Source: an uncultured Prevotellaceae bacterium
GTDB taxonomy: Bacteria > Bacteroidota > Bacteroidia > Bacteroidales > Bacteroidaceae
Direction: 5' to 3'
Length of the DNA stretch: 64,000 bases
NCBI GenBank assembly: GCA_900315105.1
Contig: OMXX01000012.1
Span: forward strand, 53,415 to 117,414
This document shows positions 21,165 to 43,462 of the stretch, piece after piece. The notes beneath the pieces are model-generated. The model made no database searches and had not been told where the DNA came from. It saw only the letters and a list, made by a program, of their open reading frames with translations. Every line of letters begins with the position of its first letter. The stretch's first letter is position 1. The translations under genes and the position numbers were made by a program.

Positions 21165-21186
21165 AGAACGATAATAATTAACGCAT

Positions 21187-24100: not shown

Positions 24101-24493
24101 GACTTCGAACAACTTACATCTGGTGATTTTGCCGAACTGGAGCGTGTGTTCTTTGAAGAACTTGGCACCCGTGAGGAATATAACGAACTGGCAGAAGGTC
24201 ATCCGTATAAGAATAATGTAGCTGCTTTCATTCGTGTTATTAATGGTATTGACCGCAAGAAGGCACTACAGATATACCAGAACTTCATTGAAGATAACAA
24301 TCTGACCTCGGAGCAGGAACTCTATCTGAAGAACATCCTGGATTATGTAAGTGTCAATGGTGACATTGAGAACAAAAATTTCATGGAGTACCCACTGAAG
24401 GCTTTGAATTGGCGTCCGATATTCGGTAAGAACTTTGTGAAATTGAAAGATTTTGTCAACCAAATACATAAGGTTATATCGATGACCGCATAA
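21187..24493 (+). pseudogene. hsdR: Type I restriction endonuclease HsdR, frameshifted by an internal deletion
   Basis: The first frame (21187-22572) carries a DUF4145-like domain (residues about 1-120), the HSDR_N nuclease core (Cys-Asp-Tyr-Val then Ile-Glu-Ala-Lys near 242-260) and helicase Walker A (Gly-Thr-Gly-Lys-Thr near 370). It stops after Phe-Ser-Val-Arg. The rest continues in the second frame (open 22529-24493) from Arg-Ser-Val-Phe-Gly-Lys-Tyr with helicase motif III (Leu-Thr-Ala-Thr-Pro) and the C-terminal domains. The segment expected between them, with the Asp-Glu-Ala-His box, is missing. No intact HsdR can be made, so restriction should be off while HsdM/HsdS methylation remains. 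Confidence 0.88.
22553..22572 (+). other. hsdR deletion junction
   Basis: At the junction the bases read as the end of Ala-Pro-Phe-Ser-Val-Arg in one frame and as His-Arg-Ser-Val-Phe-Gly in the other. Both phrases are expected in HsdR, separated by about 14 residues that include the DEAH box. One stretch can serve both because the same dozen or so bases probably occurred twice in the ancestor. Recombination between them would remove about 41 bp and shift the frame. Confidence 0.65.
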
Positions 24494-24729: not shown

Positions 24730-24868
24730 AAAAAAATAAGCTGATTGGGTCATTACCCGGTCAATACAATGCAATATCCGTATTTAATATTTCTAAGTTA
24801 AACAATTAGAATAAATATATAGAATCAATAGATAATTATATCGGTCGTAGTCATTGATATTCAAAGAA

Positions 24869-26422: not shown

Positions 26423-27148
26423 ATGAACACTCAGAAAATTTACAACCTCGTTATCCTTGACGCATCAGGTTCAATGGAAACTATCTACACTCAGGCTCTC
26501 ACTGGTGTGAACGAAACACTTGCCACCATCCGTATGGCACAGGAGGAACATCCAGAACTCCAACAGTATGTCACACTGGCATCGTTCAGTGCTGGAGCTC
26601 ATTTCCTCAACCGCATCTATTCAGCGAAGCCAATAGCTGAAGCCCAAAACATTACACGAGAAGACTATCCCCTACTCGGATGTACAGCCCTCTACGATGC
26701 AATGGGTACATGTATCAGTGAACTCCAGCAGAAAGTTACTCATGGTGACCGTGTACTTGTCACTATCATCACCGATGGCTACGAGAATGCATCACGCACT
26801 TGGAGCGGCCATCAGATAAAGTCACTTGTTCAAGAACTCCGTCAGATGGGATGGACATTCACTTATATTGGTGCTGACCAAGATGTGGAGAAAGTAGCTG
26901 GAGAGATAGGCGTACAGAACTCACTCCGCTTCTCTGCAAATGCGGAAGAGACAGATGCCATGTTTGAGAAGGAACGTCGTAGCCGTAGCAAGTTCTACAG
27001 CAAGGTGTGTTGCGAGATAGCATCCCCATTTGCGTCTATGGTCGAAACTAACGACTATTTTGCAGATGATGATGAGCTTATTTCAAGACAGCACGAACCA
27101 GAAGCAAAGAAATGTGGAGTCCTGACCAAACTGTTTGGAAAGAAATAG
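26423..27148 (+). CDS. von Willebrand factor A domain protein, cytosolic
   Basis: The MIDAS metal site is intact: Asp-Ala-Ser-Gly-Ser near residues 11-15 and Thr-Asp-Gly-Tyr-Glu near 117. There is no signal peptide, so the protein is cytosolic. The vWA fold covers about residues 5-185; a basic tail with Lys-Lys ends the protein. vWA proteins bind partners through the metal site and often work with AAA+ or TerY-type systems; none is adjacent. It has its own strong promoter and is followed after 57 nt by the 421-aa gene, with a hairpin between them. Confidence 0.82.
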   Translation: MNTQKIYNLVILDASGSMETIYTQALTGVNETLATIRMAQEEHPELQQYVTLASFSAGAHFLNRIYSAKPIAEAQNITREDYPLLGCTALYDAMGTCISELQQKVTHGDRVLVTIITDGYENASRTWSGHQIKSLVQELRQMGWTFTYIGADQDVEKVAGEIGVQNSLRFSANAEETDAMFEKERRSRSKFYSKVCCEIASPFASMVETNDYFADDDELISRQHEPEAKKCGVLTKLFGKK

Positions 27149-27205: not shown

Positions 27206-28471
27206 ATGGCAGTAAACGAAATACTATTCAAGGAATTACCATTCCGACCGGATCACAATCAGGTGTTCTACATTGAGAATGGCTATGATTCGGATGCGAA
27301 TAACATCATCCGCAGTAACTATTATGAATTGAAATCCATGTTTGCCGATATAGGCATGGATTTCTATTACATGCCATACTTGCTAAGGGAGCATGATATT
27401 GAGGCGAAGGTCAGGTACTATGCTCCTTACCTTTCTTCCAATCTTCTTGTTACGGAAGTTCGGAGTGATGCATTAGTTCCATATATCACAGATGATGACA
27501 CACGGAAGAACCTGAAACCATCGTTTGTTTTTGGGGGAATGCAAAGACATGGTGGTGATATCCGTTTTTTGCAAGTGCTGCTGTCAGAAATAGATTTTAC
27601 GCAACCTAAGTCTCTTGAAGACCTGAAGCGTTTGGTCATAAAAAGGCGTGAAGCCTACTACCAAGAATTGGTATTTAGTCATGCAGAACGCTTAGAATCG
27701 ATAAGTTCTTCTTTTAGAATGGAAGAAGAGGCTATACGCTGTGAAAAGAAAATGTCTCCTTCATCTGAGAACCCTTGTATTCGTTATGAACGGTCAGAAG
27801 AAGAGGAAACAATTGGTAGTAAGCCGAAGGCATCCAGTAATAAATCTGGAATGTTCGGGAGGATCCTAAAGTACCTCAGTGTGTATGAAGAACCAAGCGA
27901 AGACGCGAGTGATAGCGATATTGTCCCTGAGAAGACAGAAGAAGAATTAGCTGAAGAGAAGAGCCTTATCGAGACAGCAAATGTTCTTCGTGAGCTTCGT
28001 ATGACAGTTCAGAAACTCAGGCTTGAAGGTGTTTCGTTGATGGCGATTCATGAGTTCATCGACAAGCAGGAACCATTATCGCGCATGATAATCACTCCAG
28101 ACTATCGTATATATCTTCCCGACTACAATGACATGGAAATCGAGATGGGAGCCTTGCCTAAAGCCGTATATTTCCTGTACTTGCGCTATCCAGAAGGTAT
28201 TATCTACAAGCACATGCAAGACTATTACAGCGAGTTGCTTAATATCTACAAACAGTTACGTCCCAATACAGATGAAGCCAGACTCAATCTTACAATAACG
28301 AAAGTAGTCAATCCTTTAGGAAATGCGCTCAATGAGAATATTGCACGTATTAGGAAGGCATTCGTAGAGAAATTCGATGAGCACCTTGCAAACAACTATA
28401 TCATAACAGGTGAGCGAGGATTACAGTATTCCATACCTCTTGATAGGAATCTGATTACATGGGAGGAATAG
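27206..28471 (+). CDS. Conserved-looking 421-aa protein of unknown function
   Basis: A soluble protein with two ordered parts: residues about 1-170, and about 255-421, joined by an acidic, serine-rich linker. The C-terminal part contains Tyr-Phe-Leu-Tyr-Leu-Arg-Tyr-Pro-Glu-Gly and ends with Ile-Thr-Gly-Glu-Arg-Gly. I have an impression of similar C-terminal domains in other Bacteroidota accessory proteins, but cannot name a family. The last 43 codons and the downstream DNA are duplicated at 43226. The gene once converged on the M23 peptidase gene now at 43410. Confidence 0.7.
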   Translation: MAVNEILFKELPFRPDHNQVFYIENGYDSDANNIIRSNYYELKSMFADIGMDFYYMPYLLREHDIEAKVRYYAPYLSSNLLVTEVRSDALVPYITDDDTRKNLKPSFVFGGMQRHGGDIRFLQVLLSEIDFTQPKSLEDLKRLVIKRREAYYQELVFSHAERLESISSSFRMEEEAIRCEKKMSPSSENPCIRYERSEEEETIGSKPKASSNKSGMFGRILKYLSVYEEPSEDASDSDIVPEKTEEELAEEKSLIETANVLRELRMTVQKLRLEGVSLMAIHEFIDKQEPLSRMIITPDYRIYLPDYNDMEIEMGALPKAVYFLYLRYPEGIIYKHMQDYYSELLNIYKQLRPNTDEARLNLTITKVVNPLGNALNENIARIRKAFVEKFDEHLANNYIITGERGLQYSIPLDRNLITWEE

Positions 28472-28577
28472 CCTTTAAGGTAAAAGTCTAAAGGCAATCA
28501 CTATGCCTGGTAGATTCCATCAGACTACATTTCATATTTCTTGATATACTCTAGAAGAATGACGTCATTGAATACCT
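28341..28577. repeat. Direct repeat, left copy (237 bp)
   Basis: This segment aligns without gaps to 43226-43462 with about 15 mismatches by hand count (about 94% identity). It spans the last codons of the 421-aa gene, the intergenic hairpin (28471-28477 with 28489-28495), and a relic of the M23 peptidase 3' end. The two copies bracket the eight-gene island. Confidence 0.9.
28529..28577 (-). pseudogene. Relic of the 3' end of the M23 peptidase gene
   Basis: On the minus strand this encodes Val-Phe-Asn-Asp-Val-Ile-Leu-Leu-Glu-Tyr-Ile-Lys-Lys-Tyr-Glu and a stop. It matches the C-terminus of the intact M23 gene at 43410-44018. Upstream of 28577 similarity ends abruptly, marking the left junction of the inserted DNA. 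Confidence 0.75.
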
Positions 28578-28911
28578 GTAAAAATGAATCATTTTTTGTA
28601 GTCATTTTGTCTTTTTTTAAAAATATAAAATAATGAAGGAAATATTTAAAAAAAGCTGTAGTGTTACACGATTTGGATTGATCACGTATTCGTAAAATGC
28701 TGATTATCAGTGGTCGCTTTTTTTATGAAGAGCAATTCAAGAGAATTACGAATTCAAATCGGCTTATATTAAAAATTATTACAACGTCTTAATATTTAAA
28801 GCTTTACAACCATTGTTCTGCTTTTTAACGAGACACTAGTGATATTACATATATTTGTAGTTTTTTTAGTGGCGACTAAATAGCAAGACAGGCACTTTAT
28901 TTGTTTTTAGG
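28578..28911. other. Non-coding stretch at the left end of the insertion
   Basis: AT-rich with no long ORF. It contains an 11-bp palindrome with a one-base centre at 28700-28710 and a lone TATATTTG box at 28850-28857 (+ strand) that leads to no gene. No transposase inverted repeat or integrase core site could be identified. Confidence 0.45.
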
Positions 28912-29442
28912 CTATTCAACAAAGCCATAAATACAATGAGCTACTATAATCATAACTCCTACAGCAACTGCAAGAAGAAGATTCACCACAGCAAAGAAAT
29001 GCAATCCGTACACATTCCCTATATATGGGAATGAGTATATGTCGATGTTGGTGGTTGCAGGAAGAAAGCCTAATAGCATTAGACCCACAAGCATGTTAGC
29101 CAGCACACCTGCAAAGTCAAGTAACATATCCTTTCCGTCAGACAGGTTTTCCTTAAGATTCTCGGACTTGTCCTGTTCATCCAAAGGCTCTGTAAACCTC
29201 ACATCAGCAGTAACAGGCAACCATCCTATTCTGAATTCAATTCTATCTCTCATCTTCGGAAAGAGGCAGACAAACCATCTGTCATGACTGCTGAAGACAT
29301 GGAAGCCCCAACTGGCAAACACATCGATTCTCTTCATCCTTACTCCAAAGACACTGCCTATCAGATAATATCCGAAAGCATGGACCAACAGAGCGAGAAA
29401 TATAAAGGATATACCTTCTGTATAGAGTAAAACGCTATTCAT
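28912..29442 (-). CDS. Site-2-protease (M50)-like membrane protein, catalytic motif lost
   Basis: The 176-aa protein has membrane segments at residues about 10-32, 108-128 and 145-172. Its first segment resembles the M50 zinc motif region, but His-Glu-x2-His reads His21-Ala22-Phe23-Gly24-Tyr25, so the catalytic Glu and second His are gone. The following Gly-Val-Arg and the later Phe-Ala-Gly-Val-Leu-Ala-Asn segment also fit the M50 pattern. It would be a pseudoprotease that binds rather than cuts. It is the last gene of the leftward set, 25 nt after the AddA-like gene. The M50 assignment is from motif reading and should be tested by structure. Confidence 0.55.
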   Translation of the reverse strand: MNSVLLYTEGISFIFLALLVHAFGYYLIGSVFGVRMKRIDVFASWGFHVFSSHDRWFVCLFPKMRDRIEFRIGWLPVTADVRFTEPLDEQDKSENLKENLSDGKDMLLDFAGVLANMLVGLMLLGFLPATTNIDIYSFPYIGNVYGLHFFAVVNLLLAVAVGVMIIVAHCIYGFVE

Positions 29443-29466
29443 TAAAACATATGTAATTTTTAATTA

Positions 29467-32400
29467 TCAATCAACTTTAACCAGCACTCCCGTAACGGGA
29501 TAATATATTAACTTTGCAATTACATTTTTGCCATTAGCCTTGAGGGCATCAGCGTAATAGTTGAGTTGCTTCTTATATCTACCGGCATATACGGAAGGAT
29601 GCTCCTTGTCCAATACATACTCAGGCTTACCTTGGAAAGTCTTGTAATCCACAATGACTGCTCCGTCCTTAGTATACCATACAAGGTCAATTGAGCCATT
29701 AATAATATGCACATCAACAAACTGCTTGAACTGCAGTTCTCTTTCCTTCTTTATTGCTTCTCCGAAATTCTCAGTCAAGAGAACTTCCAGATGTCTGTAT
29801 GAATCAATCAAGGCATCAGGATCAAGAAGCTGAGTGGTAAGCATTCGCTGAAGTATAATGTCGCGTGCCATTTCAGAAGGATTCTCACAATCTATGTCAC
29901 AATAAATCTGGTGAATGCAGTTACCGACTTCAGCCTCATTTCCTTCTTCTACCTTACCAGCGATTCTATTAATCTTAGAACTGCCTGTCAGCTCCGTAAC
30001 ATCACCTAAGTCGCTATGATCAGCACTCGGCTGAATATTGCGAGGAGAATAATCTTTTTCCAGACATTCAAATTTAGCCATATGTTGTTCCTGTTCTTTT
30101 ACAAGTACATCGTATTCTGGCTTTGCAATATCAGTCTTAGAAAAGACATCACCAGTTCCAAGGCAATTTGGCGAATCAGAATCTGTATTTACACCAAGCT
30201 GCTCAAACCATTTGAGTTTTGCATTTTTCCCTTGACCTACCAACACCATCATATCCCTTGCCCTCGTCATTCCTACATACATCAGCCTCGTATTCTCTTG
30301 TATGGTTGCTGACATCCTGTCTCTGAATAACTGACTGTTAAGAACTATATTTGTGTAATTTGTAGGAAGAGATTCTTTTGTTCCCATAATCCAAGGCTTC
30401 ACGGTAATGAAACAATCTGGGAAGAAGTTATCTTTTGTAGGTGTTTGTTGATATTGAACCTGAACACCATATATCTGCTTCGAGATGATATCATTATCAG
30501 AAGCGAACGACTTATTAAGTGAAGTCAGAATGACAACTTTCCATTGTAATCCTTTGGAACTATGATATGTCTTGATATTCACACCTTTTGGATCACCATC
30601 CGCTTTCAAATCACCGAGCTGTATATAATCCATAAACCCATCGATTGTAGCAGCCTGTGCCATTGTCACGCAATGATCCTCATACATCTGGGCATATCTG
30701 CTCAGGGCATAGAGATTGGCTATGCGTTGTTCCGGCATATTCATTCTCTTCACTACATCTGCCAGCCTCAACTGTATGATTACACTTTCCACAATCGAAG
30801 CCACGGACATTCTCTTAATTGAAGCATCAAGGGCTAGTGTCTGCTTCACAAGCTCTACATTATCAAGAGCAGAGACACAAGTTTCTCTTCCTTCCTCTCC
30901 TGCCAGTCTAACTCTTTCGTTATAGTCGAGTCTGTCATCAATAATATGATTCAATGTCCACCCAGGCTCTGTAAGATACGCAATCTTGATCTTTGACAGC
31001 GTGTCCTTCTTGTTCTGTAGAATGCTGAGTACAGCAAATAGCAGTTCTGTTTCATCATATTCTTTAATATTACCACTACCTCTATTAACTGGTATTCCCA
31101 GTGACTTGATGGCATTGGCAATACTGTTAAGTTCCTCCTTGCTATATCCAAGAATAGCCACATCTGCATAGTTTTCTATCTCGCCATTAATCTTCATTTC
31201 ATGAATCTTGCCCCCAATAGCCATGTAGAAATCATCGCCCTTACTTCCCGGATAAGTCCAATATCTTAATGTATCAGGACCAAATACGGTTTTACGCCAT
31301 GGCTTCAGTTCTATATCCTCCTTGGTCATTCCATATCTACAGAATAATGGAATAAACACATGGTTCACTACCTGCACAATCTCAGGTGTTGAGCGGCGTG
31401 AGGTATCAAGCGGAAGTTCTTTCTTACAATTATTTATCCCACTTGCAATATAGTCGGTTACGGCTTTTATCAGCGCTGGATTGCCACCTCTGAAAGAATA
31501 AATAGCCTGTTTCTCATCACCTACGAAATAGGTTTTCTCCATCACGTCTGAGAGAATTGAGAAAATCTTAACCTGTGAAAGAGATGAATCCTGAAACTCA
31601 TCAACAAACAGGTACCGATAGCTATGGCCAATCTCCGCAAGTACGTCCTCGTGTTCTGTCAGTAAGCGGATAAGATACATCTCCATATCGTTGAAATCAA
31701 TCAACTGGTGTGCTTTCTTATATTCCACATATACACCTTGCCATTTCTCTGCCAAACGGAAGATGATGTCAATATACTGAGCCTGACGATCGAATATTTC
31801 TTTCGAACCAAATATTTTTGCAACCTCATCGCAAGCATTCATACATAAAGGGCATGCTTTCTTATGCTTCTCTGCTATTCCTATGAAAAGAAAATAAAAA
31901 TCAACAAGCCAGTTGAATGTACGACTTTTTGCATTTCTGAGCAAAGACTCTATTTTGGGCTTATCTGTATTCGAAAAACCATTATATGAACGCATTTCCT
32001 TAATCACATCATCCCAATCTGCGTCTGTCATATTTACTTTGCTGCCAGACACAACGAATTGACTAAGCCATTTCTTACTCTCATCACGACTCAAATCATA
32101 ATCTGTGATGTCATAAGAACGACTCTTCTCAATAATACTCTTCAATTCATCCTTCCAAAAATTATAATTCTTCTCGTTTCCACGCCCTCCTTCTTTTTTC
32201 TTACTGATATTGAAGTAATCGACAAATTCGTTAAAGAATTTGATATCGTCGTCTGTAGGAAGCTTAGCCAATGACTGACTGATAAAGAACTCGGTATCGT
32301 CTTCTGAAATAACGTTCAACTCTGAACTGATACCAAGCAGATACCAGTACTTCTGTACAAACTGTTGCGCCATAGAGTGGATCGTACCAATAATAGCCTG

Positions 32401-32613
32401 ATCAAGTCGCATGGCTTTCTCGTATTTAGCATTTTCCACAAGCACGGCTTTTGCCCTTTCACGCAATTCAGCAGCAGCATCATTGGTGAAGGTCGTCAGA
32501 ATAATCTGCTCTGGTTCCACGCCGTCCTTGATTATAAGGTCAGCCAACAGATGGGTCAGTTTGTAGGTCTTTCCACTTCCTGCCCCAGCACTTGTATATG
32601 ATATATTTTTCAT
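29467..32613 (-). CDS. UvrD/RecB-type helicase-nuclease (AddA-like)
   Basis: A 1048-aa superfamily 1 helicase. Walker A (Ala-Gly-Ser-Gly-Lys-Thr) is at about residues 9-16, motif II Val-Asp-Glu-Phe-Gln-Asp near 337, motif III/IV Gly-Asp-Glu-Lys-Gln-Ala-Ile-Tyr near 366, and Tyr-Val-Gly-Met-Thr-Arg-Ala near 786. The C-terminus has a PD-(D/E)XK nuclease core (Ser-Ile-Asp-Leu-Val then Val-Asp-Tyr-Lys-Thr near 975-990). This matches AddA of the AddAB double-strand-break resection complex in size and layout. Its start overlaps the AddB-like gene by 4 nt, so the two are a coupled pair. Confidence 0.85.
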   Translation of the reverse strand: MKNISYTSAGAGSGKTYKLTHLLADLIIKDGVEPEQIILTTFTNDAAAELRERAKAVLVENAKYEKAMRLDQAIIGTIHSMAQQFVQKYWYLLGISSELNVISEDDTEFFISQSLAKLPTDDDIKFFNEFVDYFNISKKKEGGRGNEKNYNFWKDELKSIIEKSRSYDITDYDLSRDESKKWLSQFVVSGSKVNMTDADWDDVIKEMRSYNGFSNTDKPKIESLLRNAKSRTFNWLVDFYFLFIGIAEKHKKACPLCMNACDEVAKIFGSKEIFDRQAQYIDIIFRLAEKWQGVYVEYKKAHQLIDFNDMEMYLIRLLTEHEDVLAEIGHSYRYLFVDEFQDSSLSQVKIFSILSDVMEKTYFVGDEKQAIYSFRGGNPALIKAVTDYIASGINNCKKELPLDTSRRSTPEIVQVVNHVFIPLFCRYGMTKEDIELKPWRKTVFGPDTLRYWTYPGSKGDDFYMAIGGKIHEMKINGEIENYADVAILGYSKEELNSIANAIKSLGIPVNRGSGNIKEYDETELLFAVLSILQNKKDTLSKIKIAYLTEPGWTLNHIIDDRLDYNERVRLAGEEGRETCVSALDNVELVKQTLALDASIKRMSVASIVESVIIQLRLADVVKRMNMPEQRIANLYALSRYAQMYEDHCVTMAQAATIDGFMDYIQLGDLKADGDPKGVNIKTYHSSKGLQWKVVILTSLNKSFASDNDIISKQIYGVQVQYQQTPTKDNFFPDCFITVKPWIMGTKESLPTNYTNIVLNSQLFRDRMSATIQENTRLMYVGMTRARDMMVLVGQGKNAKLKWFEQLGVNTDSDSPNCLGTGDVFSKTDIAKPEYDVLVKEQEQHMAKFECLEKDYSPRNIQPSADHSDLGDVTELTGSSKINRIAGKVEEGNEAEVGNCIHQIYCDIDCENPSEMARDIILQRMLTTQLLDPDALIDSYRHLEVLLTENFGEAIKKERELQFKQFVDVHIINGSIDLVWYTKDGAVIVDYKTFQGKPEYVLDKEHPSVYAGRYKKQLNYYADALKANGKNVIAKLIYYPVTGVLVKVD

Positions 32614-35312: not shown

Positions 35313-35355
35313 AATTGGTTAATAAATTTATGTTTCTGTTTTAGTTATTTGCTTG

Positions 35356-35387
35356 CAAAAATACAAATTGTTTTTTGAACCAGCAAA
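35356..35387 (-). promoter_or_regulatory. Internal promoter for the AddB/AddA-like genes
   Basis: On the minus strand TTTG (35384-35387), 20 nt, TATTTTTG (35356-35363). This fits the Bacteroidota consensus and gives a leader of about 40 nt before the ATG at 35312, splitting the island into two transcription units. Confidence 0.6.
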
Positions 35388-35404
35388 TAAATGCAGTAAA
35401 ATAT

Positions 35405-36007
35405 TCACGGAAGTTTTATACATGAAAGCCCCATTACCAATCCGATGGCAAAATCAATGGCTACCGCACCCCAGCATATCATAGCCAATAACTTGAAGAA
35501 CGGTTGTAGCAAGGGACGGATGAAATAAAAACCTAATATCAACACAATAGCTGCTATCACCCATTGTAATGCGTTCGTCAGATTGAAGGCATTTACGATG
35601 TAATACATCAGGAAACAGAATACTATTGCGAATCCAACCCATGCCACATATTTGTTGCCACGCTCCTTACTACCATTGGGTATGATAGGACCGTCAGAAT
35701 AATCAGTCCATGAATACCATCTGCTTTTGTCATGACTCCAGATATAATGATATTTGCCTACAACATCATTAGTTCTGCCAAACATATAGGCAAAGGCTGA
35801 CAAAAAAGCATAAATCCATACAAGAAACACAGCACCACCATATGGTGATTCTAATGCTGATATAATCGTGTAATGCCAGGCCCTGTCTACATCACGAGTA
35901 CTGGAAGGCAGTTCCATTCCCATTGATGCCGCACAGCTGCATCCTGACAATATCTGAGCCAAGACTATTGTCAACGTAATAACAGATATGTTTCTATATT
36001 TTCCCAT
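35405..36007 (-). CDS. Lipoprotein-type membrane protein, 200 aa
   Basis: The frame is open from 36058, but ATG 36007 is preferred: it lies one base after the stop of the 51-aa gene and gives a lipoprotein signal with lipobox Leu-Ser-Gly-Cys near residues 20-23. Further hydrophobic segments lie at about 55-75, 120-140 and 145-190. A lipoprotein signal followed by several membrane segments is unusual. No family recognised. It sits between the AAA+ gene and the AddB-like gene and may anchor the system at the membrane. Confidence 0.65.
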   Translation of the reverse strand: MGKYRNISVITLTIVLAQILSGCSCAASMGMELPSSTRDVDRAWHYTIISALESPYGGAVFLVWIYAFLSAFAYMFGRTNDVVGKYHYIWSHDKSRWYSWTDYSDGPIIPNGSKERGNKYVAWVGFAIVFCFLMYYIVNAFNLTNALQWVIAAIVLILGFYFIRPLLQPFFKLLAMICWGAVAIDFAIGLVMGLSCIKLP

Positions 36008-36008
36008 T

Positions 36009-36164
36009 CTATTGTTTTTCTTGTTCTTCCTGCAAGTCACACTCATAGCCAAACACAACTTTTACCAACTCTACAGGGAACATGATTGTCCAAGCGTAAA
36101 TTGTGTAAACTACTACATATACTGCAAGTGCGATACTTCCGATAAAATTGAAAAACTTTAACAT
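36009..36164 (-). CDS. 51-aa single-span membrane microprotein
   Basis: This short ORF begins Met-Leu-Lys-Phe-Phe-Asn, has one strong membrane segment (about residues 8-33), and ends with a charged Gln-Glu-Glu-Gln-Glu-Lys-Gln tail. It starts 14 nt after the AAA+ gene and its stop is one base before the ATG of the lipoprotein gene, so translation is likely coupled. The membrane character and tight packing support it as a real gene. Confidence 0.6.
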   Translation of the reverse strand: MLKFFNFIGSIALAVYVVVYTIYAWTIMFPVELVKVVFGYECDLQEEQEKQ

Positions 36165-36178
36165 AGTTCTTGATGTTT

Positions 36179-37918
36179 TTAAAATCCAACAACTTTGCGT
36201 GATGACACTATGGTCTCATCATCGCACATTTCCCTGATCATGTCAAAGCCGACATAATTTCCCGTGATGATCTCCGTCACGCTCTTCTTGCGCGTTATAT
36301 TCTCAATCATACCGCCAGACATGTCATATCTTCGTGCAAGTACAGCTGCTTCCTCATCAGTCAAGTCAGGCAACATTGATTTCCAGATCTTTGCCTTGAC
36401 ATCCGTTTCAGGCTTCTTGAACTGCACTTTGTATATAAACCTGCGTTCAAATGCCTTGTCCAGATTCTCGGTGAGGTTGGTTGTGGCTATCATAATGCCC
36501 TCCAGTCTCTCCATTTCCTGAAGTATGATGTTCTGCAATGAGTTCTCCATCTTGTCAACGCCAGCCTCTGCACCTTCCTTACGCTTACCAAGGATAGCAT
36601 CCGCCTCATTGAACAGCAGTATAGGAGCAACCGGTTGACTCTTGCAGAGTTCATAGTATTGTCGGAACATATGTCGGATGTTGCTTTCTGTTTCGCCAAC
36701 CCATTTGGACTTTATCTCTTCGACATTGACCTCAAAGATGTCACGACCTGTCATTCGTGCCAACTGATATACGCTCTCCGTCTTACCTGTTCCCGGATCA
36801 CCGTATAGCAGACATGCAAAGCCCTTTCGCAGCCCTTTCTCGTTAAGCCTCTTCTGTACACTTCTGAAGTTTTCGTTATCCAGAAGCGATGCAAGCTGAC
36901 TGATCAGCTTGCCTTCATGCTCATTGTAGAACAATTCCTTCTTCTTTATATTTGAGCATGACATCAGCTTTGATTCTAATCGCATGGCCACGGCATTCCG
37001 AATGTTATAGTCACACAGAAGCATTTTCTTTGCCTCATCTGTCAGGCTTATACTTGATCCGTCGGCAATACCATTGTTGCATGCAGATTCAATCAATCCA
37101 CATTGTATCAGTCCGTTATCACCACTTACGAGACTCTTTTTAACAGCATTCACCATCCTACGGCTACTATGGAATAACTTCTCTATGACCGTTATACTAT
37201 AACAAGCACGTCCAAAGTTAACAAGAGCAACGCACAGGAAGCAAAGCAGAAGTTGCTCATCATCATCCAGCGTATGATCCTTGCTATATGTAACCACCCC
37301 ATTGGCAAATGAGAGGTGACGATTGGCAGACATCAGTTCCATAATATCGGAAGCAGCCTCTTCCCAACTAAGCTCATCTTCCTGAATGCCATCAAACACT
37401 TCATCCAATTCTTCTATTAAAATCTGAGCTGTTAAATTGGTCTTAGGCGTATATTCATACTTAAGTCCCTTTTCGAACGCATCAACTACCTCTTTACGTA
37501 CGGAATACGCTTTCCTCTCTAGCCTGTCAACACCTTCTTTTAGCAGATGCTTATCCTTCAGGTCATCGAGTTCTTTGGCATACATCATCATCTTGATGTT
37601 TGAGCAGGAAAGATAGTTGCCAATTTCCTTGATCGTAACGCTATCATCCCTCTCAAGGCACACGGCAAAAAGAATGGCCTGAATCGGCGTCACATTCAGT
37701 CTTTGTGCCAGTTCATTCACCAATACCTTGTTCCACTCAAAGAACATCTGGTGAAGTTCACTGTCCTCTGCCCTATTGGCTATCTCTTCAATCAATTCAA
37801 GATAGCACATCGCCCTTGCCTTTTCTGTATCAATGGCCTCAAAAGACATTATCAACTCCTTTAATTCACTGTCACGCTTCGTTCTCGGAGCCAATCTGTT
37901 TGCTATTCTTGTTCTCAT
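36179..37918 (-). CDS. AAA+ ATPase, 579 aa
   Basis: The N-terminal 340 residues are helical, with repeated winged-helix-like stretches. The AAA+ core follows: Walker A Gly-Asp-Pro-Gly-Thr-Gly-Lys-Thr at about 372-379, Walker B Ile-Leu-Leu-Phe-Asn-Glu-Ala-Asp near 435 (Asn replaces the usual first Asp), Ala-Thr-Thr-Asn sensor 1 near 478, and paired arginines of the Arg finger near 491. This looks like the FtsH/Cdc48-related clade with an unfoldase or remodelling role. It starts 11 nt after the methylase-like gene and probably acts with it. Confidence 0.85.
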   Translation of the reverse strand: MRTRIANRLAPRTKRDSELKELIMSFEAIDTEKARAMCYLELIEEIANRAEDSELHQMFFEWNKVLVNELAQRLNVTPIQAILFAVCLERDDSVTIKEIGNYLSCSNIKMMMYAKELDDLKDKHLLKEGVDRLERKAYSVRKEVVDAFEKGLKYEYTPKTNLTAQILIEELDEVFDGIQEDELSWEEAASDIMELMSANRHLSFANGVVTYSKDHTLDDDEQLLLCFLCVALVNFGRACYSITVIEKLFHSSRRMVNAVKKSLVSGDNGLIQCGLIESACNNGIADGSSISLTDEAKKMLLCDYNIRNAVAMRLESKLMSCSNIKKKELFYNEHEGKLISQLASLLDNENFRSVQKRLNEKGLRKGFACLLYGDPGTGKTESVYQLARMTGRDIFEVNVEEIKSKWVGETESNIRHMFRQYYELCKSQPVAPILLFNEADAILGKRKEGAEAGVDKMENSLQNIILQEMERLEGIMIATTNLTENLDKAFERRFIYKVQFKKPETDVKAKIWKSMLPDLTDEEAAVLARRYDMSGGMIENITRKKSVTEIITGNYVGFDMIREMCDDETIVSSRKVVGF

Positions 37919-37929
37919 AACTTATATCA

Positions 37930-40365
37930 TTAAAATAATGAAATATGACGTTTTACATCGTCAGGTAGTTCCCTGCCACTTTTCTTCGCTTTGTCGGTTT
38001 CACGTATCCAGCGTTCCAGCTCTTCGACCTGTGGATAATAGGAGTTTGGATGGCTTGGAGTAGAAAACAGATCATCCCAGCGCTTATTGCCAGATTCACA
38101 AATCAATTTGGCAGGAATCTCTATGTTGCGTTTTTTCCCATTACCCTTAGGAATCATATAAGTCTTGTATTGCGTAGTGAGTGGCTTCAGAACCTTTTCT
38201 ATTGTCCTATTAAAACCGGAACGCTTTGAACGAAAGTCCTCGCTGAGCAAGAATTCCTTTATTTCCTTATATTCCTCCCCACGAATAACATCAGTATATC
38301 TATTTAACTTTTGCGAAATCGCATGATATATCCTCGTTATTTCGTAAGAATAATCGTGGATATCCTTGTCTCTTATCTCAAGTCCACCCTCTACCTTTTT
38401 AAGAAGAAAAAGATATACGGATGTGAACATACTCCTTATAGGTATTCTGCATTCATATTCTGGGAAGGTGATAATACCTTCATCAGTGAGGAAAATGGAA
38501 CTTACCACAGATGATCTGTTATCATTATTATGTTTCTCTAAATTAATTCTAAAATCCTCATATCTGGCTATATGCTGTTTACGAGCCTCTTCATATAACT
38601 GCTTCTGTATTTCTATGGAGCCTTTAGGTACAGGAATCAGAAGGTCTAACACCATACCTGTTGTTTGGTCATAGAGTGCAGAATCACAAGAGAAACTTTC
38701 CTTAGATGCAATCTGAAGGAACAGTTCTTTGCGATATAACTGCCAAACGAGATATTCGGGATTTATGAGTTGAGTATTCACGTCCCAAAGAATCGCATTG
38801 GTTGAATCCAAATCCTCATCGGCATCAGTCCAATATATGTACCTGTGTTTCTCACTTACAGAATCCATATAGTCTACTAATACATTTGCAGAGACAACAG
38901 GAGCCATTTCACAAGCTTCATCCCAATAAAAAGATCCAGATGTTATCTCAAAAGCATTCTTGGGTGCTGTCGAGAATTGGTACCTTCTATAAGGAACATC
39001 AACTGCAATCTTGTCAATGTCTTTTCTTGTGATTAACTCGCTTAGTTTTACATATTCATATTGTCCTTCAATAGTAGGTTTCGGACATATATAATACTTA
39101 GGATTCAGCACATAGTCATCAGGTATGTCATCCCTGCATAAAGGTTTGTACATTTCGGTCTCATTAAGCCCATTCATGACCTCACGAAAGAATTTTGCAG
39201 TTTCAACCACTGCGCGTTCCTCTGGCAATTCCGTGTCTGCATTCAAGTTATGGAAAGAGAACGCATCAATCATTATAGGAGCGTCATACTTCTCCTCTGT
39301 CTTGAAGCAGAGTAAGGCCCTTTGTGTACCTTTGAGTTCAGGTAGTGACATAACCCATGCCAATCTGCCTGATTCCAATAGAAATCTTCGGTATTGACTA
39401 TATTTATAATCACCCAACACATGAGGTTGAACGAACAAATATCCTTCCTTATAATCAAGTTCGAACATCTTATCGAAGATTTTTTTTGTCATATATTCAT
39501 TATCTGGTACATCGCAGATAATATATTCATAATAGGATTGAGAAAAAAACTCATTACAGCTACCCACAAACATACTTGGAGGCCCCATACTCTCCCACGG
39601 AGTAAGTCTGTAATATCTCGGATGAAGAATATCCATAATGTATTCACGCATAGATGTGAAATCCTTTGTATACGAAACAAATTCATGATTTTCACAACAT
39701 GACAAAAGAATACTGTTGGCATATGGAATATAGACATCACTACAATCTGGAATATCCACAAGAATCCCGAAGAAACCTGAAAAATCCGCAGTCTGCTGAT
39801 TATTCCTACATAACCTCTCATAGGCATTGGTATATATCCAAGGGAAATTCGTAACAAAATCTCCACTTTTATACCTTTCACCAAAGAATGTATAATCAAA
39901 TTTCCTATTATCAAAGATTCCAAAATCAAACAGCGTAAGTGTTCTACAGATTGACATGCCAGTATCCGTATCTACATCATCGTAAACCTTTCTCATGTAT
40001 ATTAATGCATCCACGAGATATGGATTTACATTTAGTGTTAGACAGAATCCAACTCTTGTGTATTTTGAGTTATCTTCAGGTTTCTCCCATGGAAATGGGA
40101 AGAATGGGTATGGGTGCTCATCAAGATACTTCACCGCTTCTTCGCCCTCATAACTATAAAGCAATAATTCAGGATACTCGATTTCTTTGTGTAATGCAGT
40201 TTCCTTAAAGAACTTTATGTCGCCGTCCCATGCAAAAAGAAGTATCGCCAATATTATTGGAGAGTTAGGAGCTTCCATATTAAACATGTCTATCAGATCT
40301 ACGGTAACTTCGTTCTCTGTCAGTGGAGGGTTTATATCTTCTTTTAGTATCATAAGCGACAACAA
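37930..40365 (-). CDS. Degenerate HsdM/HsdS-like protein (methylase fold without NPPY), 811 aa
   Basis: I infer kinship to type I N6-adenine methylases from residues about 275-380: a Tyr-Glu-Tyr-Ile-Ile-Cys-Asp-Val-Pro segment stands where Asn-Pro-Pro-Tyr is expected, followed by a Phe-Val-Gln-Pro strand and Leu-Leu-Glu-Ser-Gly-Arg-Leu-Ala-Trp-Val-Met-Ser-Leu-Pro. Residues about 440-640 resemble an HsdS recognition domain, with Leu-Asn-Pro-Lys-Tyr-Tyr and a Leu-Ile-Pro-Val-Pro-Lys-Gly end. No SAM-binding Gly-rich motif was found, so it is probably a DNA-binding or sensing protein and not a methylase. It is coupled to the AAA+ gene. Confidence 0.55.
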   Translation of the reverse strand: MLSLMILKEDINPPLTENEVTVDLIDMFNMEAPNSPIILAILLFAWDGDIKFFKETALHKEIEYPELLLYSYEGEEAVKYLDEHPYPFFPFPWEKPEDNSKYTRVGFCLTLNVNPYLVDALIYMRKVYDDVDTDTGMSICRTLTLFDFGIFDNRKFDYTFFGERYKSGDFVTNFPWIYTNAYERLCRNNQQTADFSGFFGILVDIPDCSDVYIPYANSILLSCCENHEFVSYTKDFTSMREYIMDILHPRYYRLTPWESMGPPSMFVGSCNEFFSQSYYEYIICDVPDNEYMTKKIFDKMFELDYKEGYLFVQPHVLGDYKYSQYRRFLLESGRLAWVMSLPELKGTQRALLCFKTEEKYDAPIMIDAFSFHNLNADTELPEERAVVETAKFFREVMNGLNETEMYKPLCRDDIPDDYVLNPKYYICPKPTIEGQYEYVKLSELITRKDIDKIAVDVPYRRYQFSTAPKNAFEITSGSFYWDEACEMAPVVSANVLVDYMDSVSEKHRYIYWTDADEDLDSTNAILWDVNTQLINPEYLVWQLYRKELFLQIASKESFSCDSALYDQTTGMVLDLLIPVPKGSIEIQKQLYEEARKQHIARYEDFRINLEKHNNDNRSSVVSSIFLTDEGIITFPEYECRIPIRSMFTSVYLFLLKKVEGGLEIRDKDIHDYSYEITRIYHAISQKLNRYTDVIRGEEYKEIKEFLLSEDFRSKRSGFNRTIEKVLKPLTTQYKTYMIPKGNGKKRNIEIPAKLICESGNKRWDDLFSTPSHPNSYYPQVEELERWIRETDKAKKSGRELPDDVKRHISLF

Positions 40366-40418
40366 TTATTTAATTCGTATTGATATTTAACAATAACATA
40401 CAATATCTGAACATATTT

Positions 40419-41054
40419 TTATATGTCAGCATTGTATTCCTTGATCTTCTTGGCAACTTCTTCAATTTCTTTAAAGATTACAATGAAAGGATTAGGATTC
40501 TCGCACAGATCACCATATGATACATTTACTATATGGTCCATTATATTACATCCTATCTCCGGGAACTTGTATATCAACTTGTTCATTGTGAAATTAGGAT
40601 CTGAGATAAATGCAGCAAGGATAAGGACATACTCCTCGTCAGTAAGAGGAACATCGACATTGCAAGGTGAAGAGAAGGTACCATCTTTCTCATAAAACTC
40701 ACGAATAGTGCATTTCGTGAATTTCTGGGGATCATTCAGGTCACATGAATCAAGATGGTTTAGGGTATAGACCGAGTCATTAGCCAAAAGCCTATCACGG
40801 AGTTCTACGTTTTTTTCAGCAAGGAATTCATCAAGATCAGCTCCATAGAGCTCATCATTCTCTGTCATCGTCTGCCAAGCCATTATCAGAGCTTTCTCAT
40901 CATCTGACAACTTGTGACAATATATACCATGGCTATCATCGTCTATGGAGCCAAGTGTGACAGGGTAACTCTCCTCACGAGGATTATTGTTGACATATTC
41001 TTGAGCTAATCTCATTTTATCTGCCATTAGTTCTTTAAATGTTGTAATATCCAT
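40419..41054 (-). CDS. 211-aa hypothetical, first gene of the island operon
   Basis: A soluble acidic protein with no motif recognised. It follows a good promoter (41092-41122) with a leader of about 35 nt and lies 53 nt before the methylase-like gene. Its first 40 codons and promoter are duplicated 1020 bp upstream, where the copy is truncated to 43 aa. A regulatory or partner role for the downstream genes is possible. Confidence 0.65.
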   Translation of the reverse strand: MDITTFKELMADKMRLAQEYVNNNPREESYPVTLGSIDDDSHGIYCHKLSDDEKALIMAWQTMTENDELYGADLDEFLAEKNVELRDRLLANDSVYTLNHLDSCDLNDPQKFTKCTIREFYEKDGTFSSPCNVDVPLTDEEYVLILAAFISDPNFTMNKLIYKFPEIGCNIMDHIVNVSYGDLCENPNPFIVIFKEIEEVAKKIKEYNADI

Positions 41055-41091
41055 AACTGTTATATTTTTGTTAAACTTTATATTTCTGCTG

Positions 41092-41122
41092 CAAAATTAA
41101 GGATTTTTGTATTCATTGCCAA
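41092..41122 (-). promoter_or_regulatory. Island operon promoter
   Basis: On the minus strand TTGG (41119-41122), 19 nt, TAATTTTG (41092-41099). It drives the 211-aa gene and probably the methylase-like, AAA+, 51-aa and lipoprotein genes. Confidence 0.65.
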
Positions 41123-41134
41123 GAAAATTCACAA

Positions 41135-41148
41135 AAGCAACGTTGCTT
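41135..41148. promoter_or_regulatory. 14-bp perfect palindrome upstream of the island promoter
   Basis: AAGCAACGTTGCTT is its own reverse complement and lies about 13 bp upstream of the -33 element. The core CAACGTTG is kept at 42160-42167 in the duplicated promoter at about the same place, which suggests a protein-binding site. Confidence 0.5.
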
Positions 41149-41255
41149 ATGTAATGATTTCTTTTATGGATCTCAAATACTTACAAATAAAATACGCATT
41201 CCTCATTAATTATATGAATCTCTCATTGGTATATACAAGGATATAACCAATGGCC

Positions 41256-41756
41256 TTATCTGCATACAGAACGGCCATTATGTTCTTGTTCATCCAGTTG
41301 ACAGATGACATCATGTAGCGTTAACGGAGATTCTCGATAGGGAAATTGGCATTCTTCGTAACATACGGCAATTCTATGCACTAGCCCCCCAAAACCGGTA
41401 TAACGGAATCTTTCTACACGTATGGTATCATTCGAATTGACAATAGCCTTCAGACCTGTAGTTGTACCACTCATAGGGTTTCCCGCAAAAGCAGCAATAT
41501 ACTCTACTGTATTATTCATTTTATTGATAGTACGGAAAGGCTCACCTTTATCGAACGCTTTTAGGATGGCACCGATACAAACCTGATGTTTTTCCAAATG
41601 CCAAACGGTAAATGGTAACCTTGCATAAAAATATTCTGCATTGGAATATATATCATCACGATGTTCATACAGAAATGGCAGGCGGAATATATATTCTTTA
41701 AATTTCTCATCAACAAATTGAGAACTGGGTACGATAATATTATTTTTCATATTCAA
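41256..41756 (-). CDS. 166-aa hypothetical protein
   Basis: A soluble protein with an Asn-Pro-Met-Ser-Gly segment near residue 93 and a Gly-Phe-Gly-Gly turn near 122. No family recognised. It lies between the two copies of the duplicated promoter, on the same strand as the island operon, and has a clean frame with a plausible ATG. It may be cotranscribed from the 42115-42145 promoter. Confidence 0.6.
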   Translation of the reverse strand: MNMKNNIIVPSSQFVDEKFKEYIFRLPFLYEHRDDIYSNAEYFYARLPFTVWHLEKHQVCIGAILKAFDKGEPFRTINKMNNTVEYIAAFAGNPMSGTTTGLKAIVNSNDTIRVERFRYTGFGGLVHRIAVCYEECQFPYRESPLTLHDVICQLDEQEHNGRSVCR

Positions 41757-41942
41757 AAGATTTTAGTGATATACAGATAGTATGATTTTGTGACAGTTCG
41801 CTATCATATATCTGTCATATCATAGAGTTAAACAAACAAATACATCTGCAAAGATACATATTTTTTGCGCAATCTTTCTGCACAGAAAATTTATCTCATA
41901 CATTTTAACTTTTTTTACATGAGAACACCTGCTCTTTTCAAC

Positions 41943-42074
41943 CTAAGCACTGCTAACATCGTCGATGTGGCCAAGTGCCTGTGTAACTCTCTCCTCATGA
42001 GGATTATTATAGAGATATTTCTGGGCTAAACTTATTTTGTTTGCCATTACTTCTTTAAATGTTGTAATATCCAT
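41943..42074 (-). pseudogene. Truncated 43-aa copy of the 211-aa gene
   Basis: It begins Met-Asp-Ile-Thr-Thr-Phe-Lys-Glu like the full gene and stays alignable to about residue 39 (Gly-His-Ile-Asp-Asp), then stops. It has the better of the two promoter copies. It is either a dead 5' fragment or a small derived protein. Confidence 0.6.
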
Positions 42075-42180
42075 AACTATATTAAATTTCAAGTTAGACT
42101 TTTTGTTTCTGCTGCAAAATTAAGCATTTATGTATTCATTGCAAAGAAAAAACAAAAAACAACGTTGCTTGTATAATTTT
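41958..42180. repeat. Promoter/5'-gene duplication, truncated copy
   Basis: Partner of 40938-41160, offset by 1020 bp. Promoter, leader and the first codons are kept. Confidence 0.75.
42115..42145 (-). promoter_or_regulatory. Second island promoter (perfect consensus)
   Basis: On the minus strand TTTG (42142-42145), 19 nt, TAATTTTG (42115-42122). It drives the 43-aa fragment and could read into the 166-aa gene. Confidence 0.65.
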
Positions 42181-42396
42181 TCTTTCCTATATTCCAAATC
42201 CTCGGTTGCGCCGAAAAAAATATTAAATACCAAAGATTTCAAATAAATCTTTTATTATAGCATCGTAAATGCGTAGTTACTCAAGAGTTAACGAACTATT
42301 GTCTTTTTATTACAAAAAATGGAAGAACGACAGTTCTATTACATCGTTCCCTATTGAACAATACTAGGTAATGTCAGAACAAGGCATCCCTTTTTT
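42181..42396. other. AT-rich gap between divergent small genes
   Basis: No ORF or RNA structure seen. It ends in long homopolymer T tracts that merge with the promoter of the next + strand ORF. Confidence 0.4.
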
Positions 42397-42399
42397 TTG

Positions 42400-42450
42400 A
42401 AAAAAATGCATTTTTTTTTTTGCATATTCCAATTTGTATATGTAAATTTG
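42400..42450 (+). promoter_or_regulatory. Palindrome and promoter before a 62-aa ORF
   Basis: An 18-bp perfect palindrome (A7-TGCA-T7, 42400-42417) leads into TTTG (42419-42422), 20 nt, TAAATTTG (42443-42450). The ATG of the small ORF is at 42463, so the leader is very short. Confidence 0.5.
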
Positions 42451-42462
42451 CATAAGAAATTG

Positions 42463-42651
42463 ATGGAGTATCCGAGAAGATATCAAATACTTCGAAGAAG
42501 TATGCGTATTACAAGATTGCGAGTGAGAGACTTACATAACAAGCAAAACAAGAATGCCCATGACGATGATATAATGTTGAGTTCATTTGAAATAGCTAAA
42601 ACAATAACGGACTTCATTACTTTATACGTTAATATCATTGCTCTATTATGA
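42463..42651 (+). CDS. 62-aa basic small protein (possible)
   Basis: The frame is open from 42397, but ATG 42463 lies just downstream of a consensus promoter and is the better start. The product is Arg-rich at the N-terminus (Arg-Arg-Tyr, Arg-Arg-Ser, Arg-Leu-Arg-Val-Arg) with a hydrophobic C-terminal third. No family recognised. Promoter placement is the main support. Confidence 0.4.
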   Translation: MEYPRRYQILRRSMRITRLRVRDLHNKQNKNAHDDDIMLSSFEIAKTITDFITLYVNIIALL

Positions 42652-42726
42652 CATATAAAAAAATGGGCAATCAAGTGGTTAAAATGCCCTATTATACCAT
42701 AATACAATTAAATTAAACAAAATCGT

Positions 42727-43050
42727 ATGGAAGAAAAGAATATACATCAAGCGAAATTCTACGTGGACTATGCGCTGGAAGCAGGAGGAGAAAGTGTCAT
42801 TCATCGCTACTGGTTTACGATAGACCTCTCAGACGAGGAGTTTGAAGAGTTATATCAGCTGTGGTATAAGAATGATTGCTCTCTTCAGAGTTGGACAGCT
42901 GATGATAAAGGTCATGAGGCCTTATGTGACAAAATTGACGGGATTGCCTATCACTCTCTTAATGACCTTCTAAAGAAGAACGAAACTCAGTTCGTGAATC
43001 CTGTCGAATGTTTTTGGGAAATATCAAAAGAGACTGCTGATGCATTTTAG
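42727..43050 (+). CDS. 107-aa acidic hypothetical protein
   Basis: A soluble protein with many Asp and Glu residues and a central Leu-Ser-Asp-Glu-Glu-Phe-Glu-Glu-Leu motif. The frame is clean and the ATG plausible. It lies at the right end of the insertion, on the + strand, opposite to the island operon. No family recognised. Confidence 0.55.
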   Translation: MEEKNIHQAKFYVDYALEAGGESVIHRYWFTIDLSDEEFEELYQLWYKNDCSLQSWTADDKGHEALCDKIDGIAYHSLNDLLKKNETQFVNPVECFWEISKETADAF

Positions 43051-43225
43051 AACGGAGAAACGCAAGGGTATAACAGATAATACATGTGGAACTTAAAATA
43101 TACTATCCCTTAGCCATGATTATTCCTGTTATAAATTATAGACTATTTAAGAATTGGTCTAAATTCGCGATCAAATTTCAACATACAAAAATCACGCCAA
43201 TTATTATGTCTTTACTTTTTCTGTC

Positions 43226-43356
43226 TTGCACGTATACGAAAGGCATTTGTGGAGAAATTCGATGAGCACCTTGCAAACAACTATATCATAACAGGTGAGC
43301 GAGGATTACAGTATTCCATACCTCTTGACAGGGATCTGATTACATGGGAGGAATAG
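43226..43356 (+). pseudogene. Relic of the 3' end of the 421-aa gene
   Basis: Encodes the last 43 residues (Ala-Phe-Val-Glu-Lys-Phe-Asp-Glu-His-Leu and so on to Thr-Trp-Glu-Glu-stop) of the protein at 27206-28471, with no start of its own. The remaining mismatches are mostly silent or conservative. Confidence 0.8.
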
Positions 43357-43462
43357 CCTTTAAGGTAAAAGTCTAAAGGCAATCACTATGCCTGCTAGAT
43401 TCCCTCAGACTACATTTCAGATTTCTTGATATACTCCAGAAGGATGGCGGCATTGAATGCCT
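43226..43462. repeat. Direct repeat, right copy (237 bp)
   Basis: Pairs with 28341-28577. Left of 43226 the similarity to the 421-aa gene stops abruptly, marking the right junction. The repeat then runs into the intact M23 gene. Confidence 0.9.

What the first reader, a model, noticed from the sequence alone, without database searches (positions are those of the whole stretch)
28341..43462. Eight-gene island inserted between a 237-bp direct repeat: candidate new defence or DNA-processing system
Directly seen: two co-linear 237-bp copies (about 94% identical by hand count) bracket about 14.6 kb. Inside, eight genes run in one direction: 211-aa unknown, methylase-like protein without NPPY, AAA+ ATPase, 51-aa membrane protein, lipoprotein/membrane protein, AddB-like, AddA-like, inactive M50-like protein. 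Known families: AddAB pairs are normally housekeeping recombination genes; AAA+ and methylase-fold proteins pair in several defence systems. Inference: a modular cargo with a sensing/remodelling unit and a DNA-degrading unit. I know of no named system with this gene set.
Basis: partly seen in the sequence, partly recalled or inferred. Interest (0 to 1): 0.85.

Follow-up and report, generated by a model that had tools for sequence, protein, structure and literature searches.

The report
Mobile AddAB nuclease cassette, likely defence
A mobile element of a gut-type bacterium carries a spare copy of a DNA-chewing repair machine (AddAB) packed with an ATP-driven motor and unfamiliar proteins; relatives of the machine sit near anti-virus genes in other bacteria, so it is probably an undescribed defence module.

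Summary
The repeat and the island are real: two 237-bp copies (222 of 237 identical) flank 14.6 kb in the cargo slot of a Bacteroidales conjugative element, beside type I restriction genes. One co-directional gene (166 aa) was missed. The AddA/AddB pair is AddAB-type: catalytic residues are intact and the AddB model matches Bacillus subtilis AddB best. It is an accessory lineage: strong AddB relatives occur in 12 of 399 genomes sampled from one family, and the one genome checked (G001) keeps a distinct chromosomal AddAB. In at least 6 of 16 such genomes a neighbour scores as a restriction or defence gene. Locus L001 repeats the order unknown, unknown, AAA+, membrane, AddB, AddA without the methylase-like gene; there AAA+/membrane are 96-97% identical but AddAB only about 30%, so modules have been exchanged. 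The methylase-like protein is nearly unique; two distant relatives carry a kinase or ATPase domain instead of its tail, suggesting a dead-methylase sensor family. Best reading: a modular defence cassette with a mobile AddAB as effector and AAA+ as facultative partner. Defence is inferred from context only. A fixed eight-gene system is not supported.

The parts
28341..28577 (+). left copy of the 237-bp direct repeat: 3' end of the 421-aa gene, intergenic stretch, 3' tip of M23 gene
43226..43462 (+). right copy of the repeat: orphan tail of the 421-aa gene plus 3' end of the intact M23 gene
41256..41756 (-).
40419..41054 (-). 211-aa protein of unknown function; 76.8% identical in L001; distant relatives also near AddB in L150 and L154
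37930..40365 (-). 811-aa (807 from the ATG) methylase-like protein: no NPPY-type motif, no Pfam hit; middle part weakly aligns with HsdM; C-terminal part shared with the 421-aa family
36179..37918 (-). AAA+ ATPase, 579 aa, IetA-like AAA domain, Walker B reads FNEAD; N-terminal part specific to this family
36009..36164 (-). 51-aa small protein, membrane type by eye
35405..36010 (-). 201-aa membrane protein (217 aa from the TTG) with a lipobox-like LSGC near its start, by eye; 97.2% identical in L001
32610..35312 (-). AddB-like protein: helicase-like fold without P-loop, intact PD-(D/E)XK nuclease residues; model matches B. subtilis AddB
29467..32613 (-). AddA-like protein: UvrD-type helicase plus PD-(D/E)XK nuclease, motifs intact
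28912..29442 (-). M50-like membrane protein (below cut-off), HAFGY where HExxH would be; no relative in the loci fetched
35313..35410 (-). leader of AddB with a TTTG-N20-TATTTTTG promoter-like pair (Bacteroides-type motif, recalled); the near-identity with L001 ends here
41989..42159 (-). 83-87% duplicate of the 5' end and upstream region of the 211-aa gene (remnant)
18454..24493 (+). type I restriction genes in the same cargo slot (HsdM, HsdS, HsdR C-terminal part by family search)

Best explanation
The island is a mobile, modular defence cassette in the cargo slot of a Bacteroidales conjugative element. Its effector is an accessory AddAB-type helicase-nuclease that loads on the linear DNA ends of invaders and degrades them. 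AAA+ (with the small membrane proteins) acts as a switch or remodeller that licenses the nuclease, and the 811-aa protein, a degenerate methylase-like sensor, supplies DNA recognition in this variant. Shown: AddAB identity and intact catalytic motifs, accessory status, recurrence, restriction or defence genes near several copies, mosaic exchange of modules. Inferred: antiviral or anti-plasmid activity, licensing by AAA+, DNA recognition by the 811-aa protein. The island probably entered by homologous recombination through a shared 237-bp junction, since no recombinase was recognised among the eight island ORFs scanned (inference).
Against: No function was tested. PADLOC has no model for this AddB. 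AAA+ relatives usually lack AddB nearby, and at 5 or 8 kb the excess over control genes is not significant without G001 (P 0.10 and 0.12). Only chosen neighbours were scanned; in G955 and G1080 I recognised no defence gene by eye, and in G955 the AddA ORF is only 527 aa. Accessory genes cluster anyway, so proximity is partly co-residence. The 'near AddB' label is scattered over the AAA+ tree (358 of 500 shuffles as low). The AddA score is far below NCBI's cut-off for the Gram-positive AddA equivalog (213.8 against 707.65 bits).
Confidence: 0.55

Rival explanations
1. Repair backup: the second AddAB serves recombination or repair of the mobile element itself, or stands in when phages inhibit the host's AddAB, without being a dedicated immune system.
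For: All catalytic parts of a repair AddAB are present; many phages are reported to interfere with RecBCD (PMC12904381, passages read).
Against: In other genomes the pair lies in stretches of up to 20 kb without a match to the window's TraG-like gene (not searched beyond), several times near restriction or abortive-infection genes; AddAB is exchanged against near-identical partner genes, as in fast-changing arms-race genes.
Confidence: 0.22
2. Restriction-linked clean-up: the accessory AddAB degrades DNA cut by neighbouring restriction enzymes and has no system of its own; AAA+ and the unknown genes are unrelated passengers.
For: Restriction or methylase genes lie near AddB in G082, G439, G907, G1111 and the second locus of G851; a type I system lies in the window's slot.
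Against: The order of the two unknown genes, AAA+, membrane, AddB and AddA is kept in L001 despite AddAB divergence; AddB-AddA-AAA+ run on one strand in G941 and G1137.
Confidence: 0.15
3. Chance cargo: genes gathered in a mobile-element slot with no joint function.
For: The methylase-like and M50-like genes are absent from L001; pairing with AAA+ is facultative.
Against: Same gene order in two separate contexts; an AddA ORF follows AddB in all 16 genomes kept, though it is short in G955 and cut by the contig end in G851 and G999.
Confidence: 0.08

Closest known systems
AddAB (chromosomal, Bacillus subtilis / Bacteroides)
   Same: AddA helicase-nuclease plus AddB with helicase-like fold and intact nuclease residues; adjacent, co-directional
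   Different: separate accessory lineage; AddB lacks a P-loop and a conserved four-cysteine set; AddA far below the Gram-positive AddA cut-off; mobile context with partner genes
Gabija (GajA-GajB)
   Same: UvrD-type helicase working with a nuclease; AddA scores against GajB models (8.8e-43)
   Different: no GajA among the island proteins scanned; AddA scores better as AddA-type (4e-63; 5e-63) and has its own nuclease domain; AddB present
IetAS
   Same: AAA domain of the island ATPase is closest to IetA models
   Different: 97.3 against a cut-off of 510 bits; no IetS hit; different N-terminal part
Type I / IIG restriction methylases (HsdM, PglX)
   Same: the family of the 811-aa protein aligns weakly with HsdM around motif IV (E 0.0003, probability 39.8); two distant relatives touch N6_Mtase below cut-off
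   Different: no NPPY-type motif, no Pfam match of its own, low-confidence model
Cas4-like PD-(D/E)XK nucleases
   Same: nuclease domain family PF12705 / similar fold
   Different: whole AddB architecture, no conserved cysteine cluster

Membership tests
AddAB-type helicase-nuclease | AddA with UvrD/Rep helicase and C-terminal PD-(D/E)XK nuclease | tested here: met
   motifs
AddAB-type helicase-nuclease | AddB with AddB/RecC-like overall fold and C-terminal nuclease | tested here: met
   (model pLDDT 74.9; rmsd 14-15, domains placed differently)
AddAB-type helicase-nuclease | catalytic residues intact in both subunits | tested here: met
   AddA K15, D338, E339, H901, D976, D989, K991 (4 rows); AddB H642, D744, D758, K760, Q778 (16 rows) invariant
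AddAB-type helicase-nuclease | Chi recognition and recombination activity | not testable with these tools
   needs biochemistry
B. subtilis-type AddB (narrow sense) | four-cysteine iron-sulphur cluster in the nuclease part (recalled) | tested here: not met
   only C90 and C723 reach 70% in 16 rows; not tested for chromosomal Bacteroides AddB, so the claim is AddAB-type only
Gram-positive AddA equivalog (TIGR02785) | score above curated cut-off | tested here: not met
   213.8 against 707.65 bits
Gabija | GajA OLD-type nuclease next to GajB | tested here: not met
   no GajA hit among the eight island proteins scanned
IetAS | IetA above curated cut-off | tested here: not met
   97.3 against 510 bits
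IetAS | IetS serine protease neighbour | tested here: not met
   no IetS hit among the eight island proteins scanned
N6-adenine methylase (HsdM/PglX) | (D/N/S)PP(Y/F/W) catalytic motif | tested here: not met
   absent in 4 of 4 sequences
N6-adenine methylase (HsdM/PglX) | methylase fold | tested here: inconclusive
   weak profile alignment, sub-threshold Pfam in two distant relatives, failed model, no PDB match by sequence
anti-phage defence system | protection shown against phage or plasmid | not testable with these tools
   context only

The most novel reading that the evidence does not exclude
A defence system in which a catalytically dead methylase-like sensor recognises incoming DNA and an AAA+ ATPase hands it to a dedicated, Chi-blind AddAB that destroys it, with the AddAB effector exchangeable as a cassette. 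The sensor belongs to a wider Bacteroidota family of dead methylases with interchangeable outputs (a Ser/Thr kinase in L193, a histidine-kinase-type ATPase in L194, here a domain shared with the neighbouring 421-aa protein).
Probability: 0.25. Interest if true: 0.85.

Novelty: new variant of a known kind. Interest (0 to 1): 0.63.

Why it matters
AddAB and RecBCD are known as housekeeping end-processing machines that phages attack and other defences watch over. A separate, mobile AddAB lineage that recurs near defence genes would mean that bacteria have turned the housekeeping machine into a portable weapon or a spare. That makes directly testable whether such copies ignore Chi, resist phage inhibitors, or need an AAA+ licence. 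A family of dead methylases used as sensors with swapped signalling outputs would be a second new theme.

Tried and rejected
Eight-gene unit: rejected as a fixed set, because L001 lacks two of the genes. AddAB as the host's only copy: rejected for G001; untestable for the window's own genome, which is not held.

Methylase-like protein: scans of genome contigs, viral contigs, plasmids and phages found no relative; the protein database gave 3, one of them 99% identical. In 399 family genomes 16 had a match at E 0.001 or better: in 14 it lies beyond model position 570, in ORFs of about 200-435 aa; the other two (G1091, positions 484-591; G831, 300-436) lie in ORFs of about 840-870 aa, which I fetched and found to be distant relatives with other C-terminal domains. 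Pfam, PHROGs and PDB by sequence were empty for the window protein. A weak retron-RT match at residues 720-753 (E 0.00037; 0.013) was set aside: it covers 34 residues only. Its structure model failed (pLDDT 35.6). BLASTP of the L194 relative against the window's HsdM gave nothing.

AddB in viral contigs: none; 211-aa protein: none. AddB in plasmids: 25 records, all below 60% identity (20-28% in the 20 rows listed), 20 of 25 in Rhizobiales-type genera (grouping recalled), not followed. Neighbours of the wide AAA+ family: no constant partner; the commonest neighbour cluster stood beside 17 of 87.

Rows left out of counts: G531 and G741 (AddB relatives with no ORF matching AddA in the DNA fetched) were not among the 16 genomes used for co-location; weak AddB matches (12 of the 15 genomes) were not counted as accessory. 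In the AAA+ tree only loci L002-L045 with ORFs over 500 aa were added to the near/far copies. Distance limits of 5, 8, 12 and 15 kb were all tried.

Literature: searches listed no paper that I could recognise, from titles, abstracts or passages, as describing an accessory AddAB defence cassette; the library lacks most subscription papers.
Full report
Observation. Each copy holds the junction between the 421-aa gene on the left and the M23-peptidase gene on the right. The island therefore lies between two former neighbours. Six per cent divergence, and no recombinase recognised by Pfam among the eight island ORFs scanned, suggest entry by homologous recombination through a related junction rather than a fresh target-site duplication; this is inference.

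Setting. The window carries a TraG/VirD4-type coupling protein (PF02534 4e-15), a lysozyme-type gene and the M23 gene. A relative, L173 (G881), matches the first two on one side of a slot and, on the other, the M23 gene plus nine following genes. In L173 the slot holds a type II methyltransferase and restriction enzyme (PADLOC 6.5e-115 and 5.6e-89). In the window the same slot (about 12.9-43.4 kb) holds type I restriction genes (HsdM 1.6e-174; HsdS and the C-terminal part of HsdR) and the island. So the slot holds restriction genes in both elements where I could read it.

The 811-aa protein. It has no Pfam match, three relatives in 5.8 billion proteins, no NPPY-type motif and a failed model. 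Two distant relatives were found in G1091 and G831 (E 2.6e-5 and 7.1e-5 per genome, 399 genomes searched). They carry a Ser/Thr kinase (L193, PF00069 1e-35) or a histidine-kinase-type ATPase (L194, PF02518 1.2e-5, 26.1 bits against a cut-off of 26.4) at the C-terminus and touch N6_Mtase weakly (E 0.042 and 0.081, below cut-off) in the matching region. With them in the profile the alignment to HsdM rises from E 0.0046 (probability 7.6) to E 0.0003 (probability 39.8), placing VPDN opposite HsdM's NPPF. P0003 and L194 match by BLASTP at E 2e-5; L194 alone does not match the window's HsdM. The kinase-tailed relative lies upstream of Wadjet genes JetA, JetB and JetC. The C-terminal part of the 811-aa protein (about 600-790) is homologous to the C-terminus of the 421-aa protein next to the island and to 15 ORFs in the loci, plus a weak one in L109 (the model was built from both window sequences). 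Reading the part after the methylase-like stretch as target-recognition-like is my inspection only. A dead-methylase sensor family with exchangeable outputs is therefore a moderate inference.

Recurrence. L001 (Prevotellaceae MAG contig CAMJKP010000013.1) has, in the same order, homologues of the 166-aa (62.7%), 211-aa (76.8%), AAA+ (95.5%), membrane (97.2%), AddB (28.0%) and AddA (33.2%) proteins, and no 811-aa or M50-like gene. At the DNA level 95.5% identity runs over window 35328-37954 and stops about 15 bases before the AddB start. On the other side it reaches about 24 bases into the 3' end of the 811-aa gene, beyond a small gap, hinting that L001's module came from a locus with that gene (suggestive only). 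In the AddB tree the window groups with P0011-P0015 and L001 with G941 and G849, both with full support. AddAB has thus been exchanged against near-constant partners.

Distribution. AddB relatives: 3 strong of 393 order genomes (15 of 393 at E 0.001, twelve of them weak), 5 of 395 class genomes at E 1e-10 (two without an adjacent AddA in the DNA fetched), 12 of 399 family genomes at E 1e-10; G001 is in all three. G001's chromosomal AddAB (L106) is not matched by the island AddA at E 1e-6 by BLASTP. An AddA ORF follows AddB in all 16 genomes kept; it is short in G955 (527 aa) and cut by the contig end in G851 and G999. Neighbours, scanned by choice and not exhaustively: an MmeI-type IIG enzyme 278 nt before AddB in G082; HsdM, AbiEi, AbiEii in G439; type II MTase and an Orf5/HEC-06-like protein in G907; a REase_II-like ORF in G1111; an NsnB/AriA-like ATPase in G660 with two 5mC methylases; a type II MTase in G851's second locus; a Schlafen-AlbA_2 protein after AddA in G1003, WYL/WCX proteins directly before AddB in G1129 and G1111. 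Scanned without a PADLOC hit: L119 4681-6948, L153 92-1441. In G955 and G1080 I recognised no such neighbour, and contigs of G197, G851 and G999 are short.

AAA+ association. In 16 AddB genomes there are 19 AAA+ copies (E 1e-40; 13 of 16 genomes have one), 8 of them within 12 kb of AddB in 7 genomes; uniform expectation is 0.17. Because accessory genes cluster, I compared WYL (4 of 36), HsdM (1 of 20) and 5mC methylases (3 of 19). G001 was found through its AAA+; without it the figures are 7 of 18 against 8 of 70, P 0.011 (0.018 at 15 kb), but at 5 or 8 kb P is 0.10 and 0.12. 'Near' copies are spread over the AAA+ tree (at least 4 changes forced by well-supported branches; 358 of 500 shuffles as low), so the pairing arose repeatedly or is mere co-residence.

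Mechanism. Most likely, AddAB degrades linear or cut foreign DNA, with AAA+ and membrane proteins as regulators and the 811-aa protein as an optional recogniser. Only the enzyme identity and the genomic association are shown. The review PMC12904381 (passages read) describes RecBCD as a repair complex that phages interfere with and that Gabija and OLD monitor; an extra AddAB could be a spare or a Chi-blind weapon. PMC5729914 (passages) links Bacteroides ICEs with defence islands and mentions AddAB only as a DNA-processing enzyme; PMC12948488 and PMC5704561 were read in passages and mention AddAB or AddB only as repair enzymes. No paper listed was recognised as describing an accessory AddAB defence cassette.

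Verdict. Real, recurrent, mobile, not covered by a PADLOC model for AddB; a new variant of a known enzyme kind, probably defensive. The claim of a new eight-gene system is too strong.

Noticed in passing
L193 2861-5389 and L194 2629-5208: Distant relatives of the 811-aa protein carry a Ser/Thr kinase or a histidine-kinase-type ATPase as C-terminal domain; the first lies upstream of Wadjet jetA, jetB, jetC genes, the second next to an AriA/PDC-M29A-like ATPase.
   Followed up: partly
window 27206-28471 and 37930-40365: The C-terminal part of the 811-aa island protein shares a domain with the 421-aa gene next to the island; the 421-aa gene lies beside a VWA gene (26423-27148) in L174 and L175 too, and both genes occur in L177.
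   Followed up: partly
window 40969-41136 and 41989-42159: The 5' end and upstream region of the 211-aa gene are repeated (83-87%) about 1 kb away, across the 166-aa gene.
   Followed up: no
L173 2716-5102: The same cargo slot of a related conjugative element holds a type II restriction-modification pair.
   Followed up: yes
window 21187-22572 and 22529-24493: HsdR of the type I system appears as two overlapping ORFs in different frames, so it may be frameshifted.
   Followed up: no
L108 10416-13232: An MmeI-type IIG restriction-methylase lies 278 nt before accessory AddB-AddA in G082.
   Followed up: yes
L155 1034-9935: AddB, AddA, a 138-aa protein, an HAD-like protein (by eye) and AAA+ run on one strand with short gaps; a second AAA+ begins at 18359.
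   Followed up: partly
L153 2883-7307: This AddA has about 400 extra C-terminal residues without a Pfam match.
   Followed up: no
window 36179-37918: Walker B of the AAA+ reads FNEAD (Asn for Asp) in all five rows of A3; the catalytic Glu is kept.
   Followed up: no
L001 3-7873 and 18521-21736: By eye, contractile-injection-type baseplate genes and another AAA ATPase lie upstream of the L001 cassette, and an HsdR-like gene downstream.
   Followed up: no
window 24854-26281: 475-aa protein matching the exonuclease VII large subunit (PF02601, 44.9 against 35.9 bits) with a coiled coil and, by eye, a C-terminal membrane helix; no PADLOC match.
   Followed up: partly
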